Positions 59,166 to 63,273 of a stretch of 64,000 nt of DNA are shown here, one piece after another. How positions within the stretch are numbered: position 1 is the stretch's first letter; each line of letters starts with the position of its first letter. The stretch is from an uncultured Cetobacterium sp. Lineage in GTDB: Bacteria > Fusobacteriota > Fusobacteriia > Fusobacteriales > Fusobacteriaceae. The DNA is taken from assembly GCF_945952365.1 (NCBI RefSeq), contig NZ_CAMFHX010000002.1, positions 62,001-126,000 on the forward strand, read 5' to 3'. A program made the position numbers and the translations under genes. The notes below the pieces were generated by a model. That model saw only the letters and a program-made list of their open reading frames with translations. It did not search any database and was not told the origin of the DNA.

Positions 59166-59436
59166 AGTTTAGAAAAAAAAATGTATTATAACATTGATTT
59201 TTTGATTTTTTAGTTGTATATTCTTACTAGGGGGATTTAATATTTGAAAATTAATAAAACTCGAGTGTTTATATATTATAAATAAATGTAAATTTGCTGA
59301 AAAGGGCGAATAAAAAGGTTTTGACTCTATAAAACTTTTAATAGAAACTTTTCCTGAGAATAACTCGGGAATCTATTACGCAACTTCCTTTGATAGCACC
59401 ACATACTTATTTCCTGACTACCACTTCTCCACATAC

Positions 59437-59526
59437 GGATATTCCAGATGTGACTATCCCACATGTGGATATTCCAGATATGGATATTCCAGACGTGGAT
59501 GGCCCAGATATGGGTGGCCCACAACT
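59437..59526 (+). repeat. 15-bp tandem repeat (about six units)
   Basis: Imperfect units of the GGATATTCCAGATGT type. Being a multiple of three, the array keeps reading frames open on both strands; one reads DIPDV-type pentapeptides. No start codon with ribosome site lies before any of the frames. Confidence 0.75.
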
Positions 59527-60033
59527 GGGAAATGACTCCTATACTAATAAAGATATTACTAAAAATATTTTTAACAAAAAAATATAAACAAAAAAAATAC
59601 TAAACTAACTAAACTAATTCTTAGTTAGTTTAAATCTGTGTTATTTTTGTTATGAGTATTACAGGACGTTGGAATCTTAAAAACAGGCTGCCAGATGAAA
59701 AAAAGAAGATCAAACACCTTCGATAAGGAATTTAATCTTCTTTAAGTTTTTAGAAAAAAGTCAGTTTTTTAATACTTTCTTTTTCCTACAAGGCTTATCA
59801 ATAATCTGTTTTATAATTTTTTTAGCTATATGTTTACTATGTCAAAAAAGAGAGGATTTTTCATAATCTTTCTATCTCAATTTTACATATAAAAAGCAAT
59901 TTCTTATTTAATTATAATTCACTATTGCTTTTACTAACTTTATGGAGCTTTTAGTATATCAAAAAATCAAAAAAATTTTGAGTTTTATTTTTTTTAAGTG
60001 CATTTCAAGTGCAAAATACCTAATATTAAATTA

Positions 60034-60235
60034 TTATAATTTAATATTATATTTTCCATTTTGAGATTTTTTCATTAAAATTTCCTTATCTATCTCAAAA
60101 AATTTTGCTAATTTAATTTCTATTTCATTAAGTAAATTTTCAAGATAATTTTTACTATACTTTATCTGATGTAATAACATTCAATATATCGTTTTCTAAT
60201 ATTTTTATCTGATTTATTTTATCTTTCAATTCCAT
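60034..60235 (-). pseudogene. Possible small gene split over two frames
   Basis: On the minus strand ATG 60235, after an AAGGAG-type site, opens 26 codons (MELKDKINQIKILEND...) and stops at 60155. A second frame, shifted by one, starts at ATG 60180 and runs 48 codons to TAA at 60034 (ending SQNGKYNIKL). Together they read like one 67-residue helical protein with a single-base shift, or like two overlapping small genes. It lies 32 nt after the nuclease-like gene and is probably in the same transcript. Confidence 0.4.
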
Positions 60236-60267
60236 TACACCTTCTCCTTCAGATAATAATATCTTCC

Positions 60268-60978
60268 TCAAAGACTTTTATTTTTATCTTCTATCTTTTC
60301 TCCATTCATTTTAGGTATGTTTATTTCTTCTCCTATTTTCACTTTATCCAAATTTTCTAATGTTGGATTCATAATTCTTATCATATCACAAAATGTTTCC
60401 CAATCAAGAAGTTTAACATTTCTATTTGCCCAAATATCCCATATTTTTTCATTTTTTTCAAAAGAGATTCTGTCCATAAACAAATCTATATATGAATCTG
60501 TAAAAATTATTGCAAAAATGGCTTTAGATACTTTTTCAAACTGAATAGCTTTTTCAAAATCCGGTTCCCCATATTGAGTAATTAAAAACTCTAAAACAAA
60601 CTCTCTTTTAAACAAATTTTTTTTTGTTGTTCCAAATGATACATTCGTTACAAATATAAAAATATCATCTTCATTCGTTTTACCATTAACTATCGTCTCA
60701 TATACTCTTCTAATAAAGTCTTTATAGTAGTCTAATAAAGCTCCTCCCTGTGAATATCCCTTAGATTCAACCCAAACGTCTCTCTGCTCTCCATTATATT
60801 GTATGGTTGCCTTCGTGTCAAAACTAAATTCTTTTCCATTTATTTTAAAAATTAGCCTTTTGGGATTTTTATATGCATCATATAACTTTTTATATGATAA
60901 ATGAGCCAATGTTAATGTTAATAACCCATTAAAATATTCTAAATACTGTCTCCCTTTTTCATGTTGTTCTTCAGCCAT
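60268..60978 (-). CDS. PD-(D/E)XK nuclease-like hypothetical protein
   Basis: A 236-residue protein not recognised as a named family. Asp54 (FSFDTKA) and ESK at 71-73 (DVWVESKGYS) sit on neighbouring predicted strands as in PD-(D/E)XK nucleases, and Glu7 could complete the site. No signal peptide. It starts at an ATG after AGGAGGAG inside the last codons of the GT51-like gene (40-bp overlap), so translation is coupled. A defence or DNA-processing role is inferred only. Confidence 0.6.
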   Translation of the reverse strand: MAEEQHEKGRQYLEYFNGLLTLTLAHLSYKKLYDAYKNPKRLIFKINGKEFSFDTKATIQYNGEQRDVWVESKGYSQGGALLDYYKDFIRRVYETIVNGKTNEDDIFIFVTNVSFGTTKKNLFKREFVLEFLITQYGEPDFEKAIQFEKVSKAIFAIIFTDSYIDLFMDRISFEKNEKIWDIWANRNVKLLDWETFCDMIRIMNPTLENLDKVKIGEEINIPKMNGEKIEDKNKSL

Positions 60979-61601
60979 AATTCTCCTCCTATTAAATAAG
61001 TTTTAGTTAGTTGTTTTCTTTCATATTTTGTTAATATAAATTTTATTGGTTTTCTAGATAAAATATTTTCTAATCTCTTTATGTTTACTTTATTTGGCAA
61101 CGCTATTCTTTCTACAAGTATAAAACACTCTATTTTATTTAATTCTATTATATTTTTTTTAAAATAAAAATTAGCAGCATTCTGAATTCCATAATATTTT
61201 TTACCTAAATATACATTTTCTAAGTATTCTTTTAATATCATCTTTTTAGAATTTTGTAACGAATATTTTAAAGCAAATAAAGATTGATTAATTTTTCTTA
61301 ACATAGTTCTCTTTCTTTTTTTTCCTTTTTTTTCTTGTTTTATATCATAAAGTTGCTGTATTATTGTGCTTCCACCTTGCAACTTTCCGCTTCTTATATT
61401 CATTATAGAAGCTCTAATAATAGCAATTAAATCAATGCCAAAATGATAATAAAATCGCTTATCTTCTATATAAATTAAAAAATATAATAAATAATATGGT
61501 ACTTCTAATTCTTCTGAAGTTTTTTTTAATTTAAATCTATTTAATTTAAAAAAATATGTATCTGTTATTTCTGATATTTTATTAATCAACTTTCTTAACA
61601 A
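60939..61601 (-). CDS. GT51 transglycosylase-like protein without membrane anchor
   Basis: About 220 residues with a penicillin-binding-protein transglycosylase domain: EDKRFYYHFGID (Glu46, the catalytic position), LQGGSTIIQQL (75-84), RTMLRKINQSLFAL where the usual RKXXE has Gln for Glu, and ILKEYLENVYLGKKYYGIQNAANFYF. Normal enzymes polymerise lipid II outside the membrane; this one has neither signal peptide nor anchor, and no transpeptidase. The start is a TTG with GAGG directly before it, so the true start is uncertain. Confidence 0.75.
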   Translation of the reverse strand: MLRKLINKISEITDTYFFKLNRFKLKKTSEELEVPYYLLYFLIYIEDKRFYYHFGIDLIAIIRASIMNIRSGKLQGGSTIIQQLYDIKQEKKGKKRKRTMLRKINQSLFALKYSLQNSKKMILKEYLENVYLGKKYYGIQNAANFYFKKNIIELNKIECFILVERIALPNKVNIKRLENILSRKPIKFILTKYERKQLTKTYLIGGELWLKNNMKKGDSI

Positions 61602-61624
61602 CCTCTTTTCAATTTTATCTTTTA

Positions 61625-62650
61625 TTATTTATCTAACTTAATTAAAAGCTCATCTAATTTTTCGCTTAAATAATCTGTTGCTAATCCACCCTCTTCTGAT
61701 ATTTTTATCATTTTTTTTAAATCTTCATCATTCAAGTCTATAATTAGTTTACCACTCTCTCTTAAGATTCCTCTCTTCACTTTTTCAGCATTTTCATTCA
61801 ATCCTTTTCTAGATATAATTATCGCTACACCTCTCAAAGCTTGCTTATATAAATATTTTTCTGTTATTATAATTTCTTTTTGAGAAATTTTTTCACTATA
61901 ATTTTTAAATTCAAATATTATATATTTTGTTTTAAAATAATCTTCAATTATATTCCAAAATTCTTTATTAGTATTACTTTTTATTTTACAAATCATATCA
62001 TATCTATACAAATCTTCATTTGTTTTTTCTTGATATTTCCACAATGCTAAATCCTCAAAAAATAAGTGCTTAAGTATTTCTATACAAGTTTGTTCATATT
62101 TTAAAAACTCTTCTCTACCAGGCTCTATACTTTCTAATAATTTCGTATAATTTTTTAGTTTTGGATTCTTTTCATTAATTTTTAAATTTGATATAATATC
62201 TTTAGTTTCATATTTATCATTAACTGAAAATTCTAACAATGATAATACTTCTATTTTTAATTCCTCATCATTATTTTCCTCTAGAAATAATAGAATATCT
62301 CTTATTGTAAAGACTCTTATATCATTATATAAAAATCCATATTTTTCATCATTATCTGTTAAATTTTCACTGTCTATTAAGGCTAATATTACTACTACCC
62401 TATTTATTGTATTATCATCAAATTTAATACGTTTCATTCTATTAATTGTAAAATCTAATCTTTTTATTGAGTAATATTTTTCTCTTGATGCTTTTACTTC
62501 TATCGCATATTTTTTTTTGTTAAATTCAACTAAAAAATCATATTCTGTATTTTTGGGCTCTTTTTCTATAAAACGAGAATACTTCACTAATATTTTTTGA
62601 ATAACTCTTTCCACTTCTTCTCCATATGATAATAGTTTAAACTTTTCCAT
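61625..62650 (-). CDS. Tandem PD-(D/E)XK nuclease-like protein
   Basis: A 341-residue protein with two restriction-endonuclease-like halves. First: Glu12, Asp38 and EVK at 51-53 (KYAIEVKAS). Second: Glu186, Asp218 (YRYDMI) and EFK at 247-249 (YIIFEFKNYSEK), then a KYLYKQALRGVAIIISRKG segment typical of such folds. It is the first gene of the operon, with its own promoter and a GGGAG site. Function as a nuclease or DNA sensor is inferred. Confidence 0.7.
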   Translation of the reverse strand: MEKFKLLSYGEEVERVIQKILVKYSRFIEKEPKNTEYDFLVEFNKKKYAIEVKASREKYYSIKRLDFTINRMKRIKFDDNTINRVVVILALIDSENLTDNDEKYGFLYNDIRVFTIRDILLFLEENNDEELKIEVLSLLEFSVNDKYETKDIISNLKINEKNPKLKNYTKLLESIEPGREEFLKYEQTCIEILKHLFFEDLALWKYQEKTNEDLYRYDMICKIKSNTNKEFWNIIEDYFKTKYIIFEFKNYSEKISQKEIIITEKYLYKQALRGVAIIISRKGLNENAEKVKRGILRESGKLIIDLNDEDLKKMIKISEEGGLATDYLSEKLDELLIKLDK

Positions 62651-62665
62651 TTTTTTCTCCCTAAT

Positions 62666-62714
62666 TTCTGTATTATTACTTCTTAAGTATAGTATATCAA
62701 CTATTTGTATACTT
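62666..62714 (-). promoter_or_regulatory. Promoter region of the nuclease/GT51 operon
   Basis: Minus strand TTGATA, 17-nt spacer, AATAAT. The arms AAGTATA and TATACTT (near 62684-62690 and 62708-62714) flank the -35 and could be an operator. The operon is thus expressed independently of the prophage genes upstream. Confidence 0.5.
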
Positions 62715-62736
62715 TTTCTACATTTTTTTATAAATA

Positions 62737-62775
62737 AAAAAAATCTTCGAAATTATTATTCAGAAGATTTTTTTC
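62737..62775. terminator. Bidirectional terminator after the holin genes
   Basis: AAAAAAATCTTC (62737-62748) and GAAGATTTTTTT (62763-62774) with a 14-nt loop and T runs both ways. It separates the prophage late genes from the nuclease/GT51 operon. Confidence 0.85.
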
Positions 62776-62826: not shown

Positions 62827-63273
62827 TCATTTATCTTTATCCAATCTTTCTTTTTTCACTGCCAATATATTTTCTATAATACCAGGAAACTTTATACCTA
62901 ATTTGGTCAAATTTTCCATTATAGAGATAGACTCCATAATAATACAACCAGTAATCATGCAAACTCTAAGTGAAATATTTATATCATTTAAAAAACTAGA
63001 TTTATCTAATTGATTCATTGTCATAATAGCAAGATATATAGCTGGCTTTCTGAGGATAAAACCTACATACATTTTTTTAGATAAAACATTTCTTTCTTTA
63101 ATAGCTTTTAAAAATCCTGTAATACAATCTATAATAGTTAGAGTAAATAAAACTTTTATATCTCCATCTATTCCACCTATAGCACTTACAAATCCTGCAC
63201 TAAGCCAAAAGATTAAATTATGTAGATAATTAAGTAAATTCTCAAAAATATTTTTTATTTCTCTCCCCTCCAA
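62827..63273 (-). CDS. Phage holin (toxin secretion/phage lysis family)
   Basis: About 142-148 residues with several hydrophobic segments: LHNLIFWLSAGFVSAIGGIDGDIKVLFTLTIIDCITGFLKAIKERNVLSKKMYVGFILRKPAIYLAIM, typical of the phage_holin_4 family that pierces the membrane at lysis. No ATG or GTG is usable. The GGAGGGG site points to an ATA at 63258-63256, overlapping the TAA of the preceding gene; a TTG at 63273 has no ribosome site. Coordinates use the TTG. Confidence 0.8.
   Translation of the reverse strand: MEGREIKNIFENLLNYLHNLIFWLSAGFVSAIGGIDGDIKVLFTLTIIDCITGFLKAIKERNVLSKKMYVGFILRKPAIYLAIMTMNQLDKSSFLNDINISLRVCMITGCIIMESISIMENLTKLGIKFPGIIENILAVKKERLDKDK

What the first reader, a model, noticed from the sequence alone, without database searches (positions are those of the whole stretch)
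60034..62650. Operon coupling two nuclease-like proteins with a cytoplasmic GT51 transglycosylase-like protein
A tandem PD-(D/E)XK protein, a GT51 domain without signal or anchor, another PD-(D/E)XK-like protein and one or two tiny ORFs form a compact unit with overlapping genes and its own promoter, beside prophage late genes. GT51 enzymes act on lipid II outside the cell, so a soluble one encoded together with nucleases is unexplained. The layout fits a defence or superinfection module that links cell-wall precursors to DNA cleavage. I know of no described system with this composition.
Basis: partly seen in the sequence, partly recalled or inferred. Interest (0 to 1): 0.75.

Follow-up and report, generated by a model that had tools for sequence, protein, structure and literature searches.

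The report
Prophage cargo: nuclease beside soluble GT51
A broken-down prophage carries a small replaceable gene cassette: a member of a widespread uncharacterised DNA-cutting enzyme family, a soluble and probably disabled cell-wall polymerase domain, and an orphan protein; the nuclease looks like ordinary phage-defence cargo, while the cell-wall gene beside it is odd and seen nowhere else so far.

Summary
The genes are real. P1 (62650-61625, minus) is a tandem PD-(D/E)XK protein with both active sites intact; its family has 25 viral and 146 genome relatives. P2 (61601-60939) is a true GT51 domain (Pfam E=3e-38) with no membrane segment. It keeps the general-base Glu46 but has lost the second catalytic Glu (RKxxE is RKINQ, E106Q). 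P3 (60978-60268) is an orphan that looks nuclease-like by eye only.

Together with two micro-ORFs they fill the cargo slot after the holin of a ~5 kb prophage remnant. A sister prophage (91% identical up to the slot) has a PIN-domain gene there instead, and a third carries something else again. This fits moron or defence cargo.

The proposed three-part system coupling cell-wall precursors to DNA cleavage is not supported. None of 105 loci carrying a P1 relative has GT51 or P3 within about 8 kb, and the trio was found nowhere else. The 23 GT51 loci in viral contigs look like ordinary PBP1s.

Best reading: an autonomous superinfection nuclease (P1) plus a lineage-specific P2-P3 pair. P2 is probably a non-catalytic GT51 whose frame selection kept open. 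What remains open is why a cytosolic GT51 pseudoenzyme sits there.

The parts
59865..62721 (-). Cargo slot: the whole stretch that is unrelated to the sister prophages
   Evidence: Homology to sister prophage L211 (91%) ends at window ~62722 and resumes at 59787-59864 (76% over 78 bp)
61625..62650 (-). P1: 341-aa tandem PD-(D/E)XK nuclease; N-terminal Mrr-like domain (D38, E51, K53), C-terminal nuclease domain (D218, E247, K249)
   Evidence: phrog_31260 E=1.7e-64; alignment A2; Mrr_cat in 16 of 17 alignment members; AF2 pLDDT 82.2, pTM 0.78; Foldseek to restriction endonucleases
60939..61601 (-). P2: 220-aa soluble GT51 domain; Glu46 and GGSTIIQQ kept, RKxxE changed to RKINQ (E106Q), no TM; TTG start with poorly spaced ribosome-binding site
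   Evidence: PF00912 E=3.2e-38; PDB alignments; comparison with 32 GT51s; start context
60268..60978 (-). P3: 236-aa orphan protein, PD-(D/E)XK-like motif by eye (FDTKATI...VWVESK); overlaps P2 by 40 nt; strong RBS
   Evidence: ORF and RBS; no relative found
60155..60271 (-). Micro-ORF 1; more likely starts at 60235 (26 aa) after AAGGAGAAGG
   Evidence: no relatives
60034..60180 (-). Micro-ORF 2 (48 aa), overlaps micro-ORF 1 in another frame; may be a frameshifted continuation of it
62672..62700 (-). Candidate promoter of P1 (TTGATA-17-AATAAT)
   Evidence: scan total not above chance
62742..62769 (.). AT-rich inverted repeat (AATCTTC...GAAGATT) with flanking T/A runs; likely terminator after the holin; lies in the part shared with the sister prophage
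   Evidence: sequence, shared region; below the criteria of the terminator scan
62827..63273 (-). Holin of the prophage remnant (phage anchor gene upstream of the cargo)
   Evidence: phrog_199 E=3e-13; 96% identical in sister prophage
59787..59864 (.). Right-end phage sequence shared with sister prophages, marks the end of the cargo

Best explanation
The stretch is a moron-type cargo cassette in the variable slot after the holin of a now-decayed prophage. Its main working part is P1, a tandem Mrr-like/PD-(D/E)XK nuclease of a widespread cargo family whose members usually stand alone. In the lysogen P1 most likely cuts incoming foreign (phage) DNA, or is unleashed on DNA during infection, and so protects the host and the resident prophage from superinfection. 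P1 probably does not need a GT51 partner, because its relatives occur without one. P2 and P3 are an overlapping accessory pair specific to this lineage. P2 is probably a non-catalytic GT51 domain that, from the cytosol, could at most bind lipid-linked precursors at the inner leaflet, and P3 is of unknown, possibly nuclease-like, fold. Shown: gene layout, domains, intact P1 active sites, the P2 substitution, slot replacement and the absence of co-occurrence. Inferred: expression, nuclease activity, protection, and any role of P2 and P3.
For: Slot replacement between prophages with 91% identical flanks, with PIN_8 cargo in the sister. P1 family in 25 viral contigs, 146 confirmed genome hits (80 kept) and plasmids. 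Members sit at cargo-like positions: beside large serine recombinases, or between tail and baseplate genes of Pseudomonas-type prophages (P2-like phage hotspots are known defence reservoirs, PMC9122126). Both PD-(D/E)XK sites intact. Mrr_cat hits. Domains shared with PADLOC candidates PDC-M36A, PDC-S02 and REase_II. AF2 and Foldseek. P1 relatives are mostly not in tight operons: 25 of 105 upstream, 22 of 105 downstream.
Against: No activity or expression data. P1 itself scores below the Pfam and PADLOC thresholds used; only its relatives hit. The compact P1-P2-P3 arrangement with a P2/P3 overlap does suggest joint expression, which a purely autonomous P1 would not need. Cargo position does not prove defence; a fitness or DNA-repair role is possible.
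Confidence: 0.6

Rival explanations
1. One reading: a dedicated three-gene defence system in which the GT51 domain senses or acts on lipid II and unleashes the nucleases.
For: Compact same-strand layout with P2/P3 overlap. P2 has been kept open despite divergence: 0 of 1000 neutral simulations had no stop, mean 8.5. The core is largely kept: 24 of 34 near-invariant positions, counted from the listing. Lipid II is made on the cytosolic face before flipping (PMC6053597), so a soluble binder could meet it.
Against: No co-occurrence in 105 P1 loci or 23 viral GT51 loci; P3 is an orphan; E106Q and K105N in the catalytic motif; weak P2 start context.
Confidence: 0.12
2. P1 alone is cargo. P2 and P3 are passengers (captured, partly decaying genes) with no joint function.
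For: P1 occurs alone elsewhere. P2 lost its membrane anchor, the catalytic Glu, and 10 of 34 near-invariant positions (counted), and has a poor start site. The surrounding prophage is itself decayed.
Against: P2 has no stop or frameshift over 220 codons at 21% GC, although neutral drift would give about 8 stops; P3 has a strong RBS and an intact frame. Caveat: P2 could have diverged as a functional PBP before its truncation.
Confidence: 0.25
3. P2-P3 is a lysis or cell-wall-interference function of the phage (the GT51 fold resembles lysozyme), and P1 is separate.
For: Position directly after the holin; the M15-type endolysin present in two sister prophages (151 aa in L211, 154 aa in L212) is missing before the holin here.
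Against: P2 has synthase motifs, not those of a muramidase; it has no signal or TM; homology to the phage ends before P1 and sister prophages have unrelated cargo at this place.
Confidence: 0.05

Closest known systems
Mrr-type restriction endonucleases (Pfam PF04471 Mrr_cat; PD-(D/E)XK superfamily)
   Same: P1 N-terminal domain: D..ExK core, Mrr_cat in 16 of 17 aligned members, fold neighbours MspJI, FokI, Hjc, AF1548
   Different: Second PD-(D/E)XK domain instead of a winged-helix DNA reader; no methyltransferase beside it; substrate unknown
phrog_31260 (unknown function) and PADLOC candidate PDC-M36A C-terminal domain
   Same: P1 matches phrog_31260 over its full length; the C-terminal domain of P1 relatives matches the last ~150 positions of PDC-M36A
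   Different: PDC-M36A has a different, longer N-terminal part; function not tested
GT51 peptidoglycan glycosyltransferases (PBP1A, MtgA; PF00912)
   Same: P2 shares the domain at 31-41% identity, motif I Glu46 and the GGSTIxQQ motif
   Different: No membrane anchor, no transpeptidase domain, second catalytic Glu replaced by Gln, several near-invariant residues lost
Defence hotspots (morons) of P2-like prophages (PMC9122126)
   Same: Small cassette exchanged at one place between conserved phage sequences
   Different: Other phage family, slot after the holin; defence not tested

Membership tests
PD-(D/E)XK / Mrr_cat nucleases (P1) | D...(D/E)xK catalytic core | tested here: met
   Both copies intact in the 17-member alignment
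PD-(D/E)XK / Mrr_cat nucleases (P1) | Profile match to the family | tested here: inconclusive
   P1 itself below threshold; 16 of 17 alignment members match Mrr_cat, best E=2.4e-13
PD-(D/E)XK / Mrr_cat nucleases (P1) | Restriction-endonuclease-like fold | tested here: met
   AF2 pLDDT 82; restriction endonucleases among the top Foldseek hits, prob up to 1.0, E down to 2e-3, and viral Mrr/REase proteins, best E=3e-5
Type II restriction-modification | Cognate DNA methyltransferase nearby | tested here: not met
   No ORF within ~5 kb that I recognise as a methyltransferase (by inspection, no profile search of every neighbour)
PD-(D/E)XK nucleases (P3) | Profile, fold or homologue support | tested here: inconclusive
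   None in Pfam, PADLOC, NCBIfam, PHROGs or PDB; HH against P1 profile prob 0.3; AF2 pLDDT 33. Motif by eye only
LysM (P3 C-terminus, my own lead) | LysM profile match | tested here: inconclusive
   Pfam none; home-made LysM profile ranks P3 10th among P3 and 2000 shuffles, post hoc
Active GT51 glycosyltransferase (P2) | Motif I general base Glu | tested here: met
   E46 aligned with 32 of 32
Active GT51 glycosyltransferase (P2) | Second conserved Glu (RKxxE) | tested here: not met
   RKINQ; Glu in 31 of 32 relatives, Glu in PDB homologues
Active GT51 glycosyltransferase (P2) | Membrane anchor / extracytoplasmic location | tested here: not met
   Max KD19 1.12, only 9 in-frame codons upstream of the start
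Moron / defence cargo | Replaceable cassette between conserved phage sequences | tested here: met
Moron / defence cargo | Own transcription unit | tested here: inconclusive
   Promoter-like site not above chance; inverted repeat shared with the sister upstream
Moron / defence cargo | Anti-phage activity | not testable with these tools
   needs phage challenge
Conserved three-gene GT51-nuclease system | Trio (or any GT51 + P1 pair) recurs in unrelated genomes | tested here: not met
   0 of 105 P1 loci, 0 of 23 viral GT51 loci, P3 nowhere

The most novel reading that the evidence does not exclude
P2 is a cytosolic GT51 pseudoenzyme that has been repurposed to bind lipid I/II (or another lipid-linked glycan) at the inner leaflet. 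With P3 it reports envelope damage or phage-induced precursor change to nucleases, making a wall-sensing DNA-cleaving defence of a kind not described before.
Probability: 0.08. Interest if true: 0.85.

Novelty: new variant of a known kind. Interest (0 to 1): 0.38.

Why it matters
P1 names a widespread, apparently uncharacterised tandem-nuclease family carried by phages, integrative elements and plasmids across many phyla: a clear candidate for a single-gene anti-phage enzyme. P2 would, if functional, be the first GT51 domain I know of that works in the cytosol (from my own knowledge; the few paper searches made found none), so a binding test would be informative either way.

Tried and rejected
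Single-protein pattern scans of viral contigs for P1, P2 and P3 found nothing because exact 8-residue matches are too strict; alignment-based scans then found the P1 family. The same weakness limits the genome-contig scan for P3. Short GT51 hits in relatives were rejected: G030 C1:1450 is a frameshifted full PBP1A, and G019 C109 is a 268-aa protein with an N-terminal hydrophobic stretch, read as an MtgA-like anchored enzyme (by eye). The Priestia and Nostoc GT51 plasmid genes have no nuclease annotated beside them. The 23 viral-contig GT51 loci look like ordinary PBP1 genes: 21 have an upstream membrane segment in view or a long frame with one, L221 is cut at its N-terminus, most are fragments at contig ends, and none has a P1 or P3 relative beside it. 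The two marginal P3 matches (G017, G292) are a histidine kinase and an ABC-transporter frame, so chance. A LysM domain at the P3 C-terminus was my own lead; it stayed weak. The match of micro-ORF 2 to L050 is taken as chance: the fused version finds nothing. AF2 of P3 from a single sequence is uninformative. Rfam and tRNA scans gave nothing.

Full report
What is there. On the minus strand, directly downstream of a holin gene (62827-63273; phrog_199), lie P1 (62650-61625, 341 aa), P2 (61601-60939, 220 aa) and P3 (60978-60268, 236 aa, overlapping P2 by 40 nt), followed by two micro-ORFs. P1 and P3 have good ribosome-binding sites. P2 starts at a TTG with GAGG directly against it, or at a second TTG 12 nt further on, so its start is weak.

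P1. phrog_31260 matches it over the full length (E=1.7e-64). Plasmid relatives led to an alignment, and that alignment to 25 viral-contig loci and 146 confirmed hits in genomes, 80 of them kept, across Bacillota, Pseudomonadota, Bacteroidota, Acidobacteriota and others. In a 17-member alignment both PD-(D/E)XK sites are intact in the window protein: D38..E51-V-K53 and D218..E247-F-K249 with T263-E-K-Y. Sixteen of 17 members match Mrr_cat. The C-terminal domain of relatives matches the end of the PADLOC candidate PDC-M36A, and the N-terminal domain matches REase_II or PDC-S02 in some. The AF2 model from this alignment is good (pLDDT 82.2, pTM 0.78), and restriction endonucleases are among its top solved-structure matches (MspJI, nicking BspD6I, FokI, Hjc; RPB5 also appears; E about 2e-3 and higher); the viral library gives restriction endonucleases and Mrr-domain proteins, best E=3e-5. 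P1 as a nuclease is therefore well supported, although its own sequence is below the Pfam and PADLOC thresholds used.

P2. PF00912 E=3.2e-38; solved relatives are PBP1A and MtgA glycosyltransferase domains. Against 32 GT51 domains, mostly from relatives, it keeps E46, D47, H53, G76, S78, Q82, Q83, R102, K103, K119, Y131, G133 and K149, among others: 24 of 34 positions that are near-invariant, my count from the listing. It has lost the Glu of RKxxE (Gln106) and the neighbouring Lys (Asn105). The general base is E233 in E. coli PBP1b (PMC8119973), and E290 is called catalytic in PMC7400108; that E46 and Gln106 correspond to these two is my reading of the motifs. No stretch is hydrophobic enough for a membrane helix. 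A crude neutral simulation shows that drift to this loss of conserved residues would leave about 8.5 stop codons, and none of 1000 runs had zero. So the frame was under selection for most of its history, with the caveat that part of the divergence may predate truncation.

P3. No convincing match in any library, the PDB, phages or plasmids, a genome contigs pattern scan, 20 genomes that hold P1, 98 genomes of the phylum and two draws of 398 genomes that largely overlap (whose listed handles coincide). The two marginal hits are chance. The PD-(D/E)XK reading rests on a motif seen by eye. Because P3 has no known relative, an empty search is weak evidence by itself.

Is it one system? Among 25 viral and 80 genome loci with P1 relatives (up to 8 kb each side) none has a GT51 or P3 relative. 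P1 relatives are rarely in tight operons (25 of 105 upstream, 22 of 105 downstream). The 23 viral-contig GT51 loci look like ordinary PBP1 genes and none has a P1 or P3 relative beside it. In the genus, family and order the other GT51 hits are long PBP1-type frames, apart from the MtgA-like G019 case and frameshifted copies. So the trio, and even the pair, is so far unique to this window.

Why it sits here. Sister prophages in related genomes share the right end: an M15-type endolysin in two of them (L211 and L212), phrog_29862, and the holin. With the closest one (L211) identity is 91% up to window ~62722, ends about 72 bp before P1, and resumes for 78 bp at 59787-59864 (76%). Between those points L211 has a 448-aa PIN_8 protein and small genes; another prophage (L212) has a different 169-aa gene, and a third runs into unrelated opposite-strand genes. 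This is a cargo slot. The resident prophage is otherwise a remnant: upstream there are only phrog_29862, a tail-fibre-type gene and a truncated recombinase before host genes such as a DinB-type polymerase (names by inspection). P1 relatives elsewhere sit in comparable places: next to large serine recombinases in Clostridia, and between a tail gene and a baseplate gene in Pseudomonas-type prophages. P2-like phages have known defence hotspots between two conserved genes (PMC9122126), although the hotspot described there is a different place.

Mechanism. Most likely P1 is a lysogen-expressed nuclease acting against superinfecting DNA. Whether it restricts directly (Type IV-like) or is an infection-triggered suicide nuclease cannot be told from sequence. 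P2 and P3 look like a coupled accessory pair; P2, if it folds, would be a binder rather than a polymerase. The link of wall precursors to DNA cleavage is possible but has no support beyond adjacency.

Verdict. The defence-cargo reading is plausible. The coupled wall-nuclease system is unsupported. The P1 family and the cytosolic GT51 pseudoenzyme are the two points worth a bench test.

Noticed in passing
L211:7195-8541 (sister prophage, + strand): 448-aa PIN_8-domain protein (PF18476, E=1.7e-37) with small flanking genes fills the same cargo slot: another candidate anti-phage cassette.
   Followed up: partly
window 60821-60793, minus strand: Perfect 12/12 sigma-70 consensus (TTGACA-17-TATAAT) inside the P3 coding sequence; could drive a transcript of the P3 end and the micro-ORFs.
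   Followed up: no
L047, L048, L052, L053, L055-L057: P1 relatives in Pseudomonas-type prophages sit in front of a conserved 190-aa baseplate-spike-like gene, which looks like a cargo position.
   Followed up: partly
L113, L117, L119: P1 relatives beside large serine recombinases and, 43 bp downstream, a 382-aa ATPase whose C-terminus looks Mrr-like by eye.
   Followed up: no
L215:7944-8234 and L214:3052-4005: A tyrosine recombinase sits next to tail-fibre genes in sister prophages (possible tail-fibre inversion switch); here it is truncated to 96 aa.
   Followed up: no
window 59390-59587: Low-complexity frame with repeated HTDIPDV/DIPDMDIPDVDGPDMGG units just outside the prophage end.
   Followed up: no
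window 60155-60180: The two micro-ORFs overlap in different frames and would read as one ~66-aa helical protein if a frameshift joined them.
   Followed up: partly
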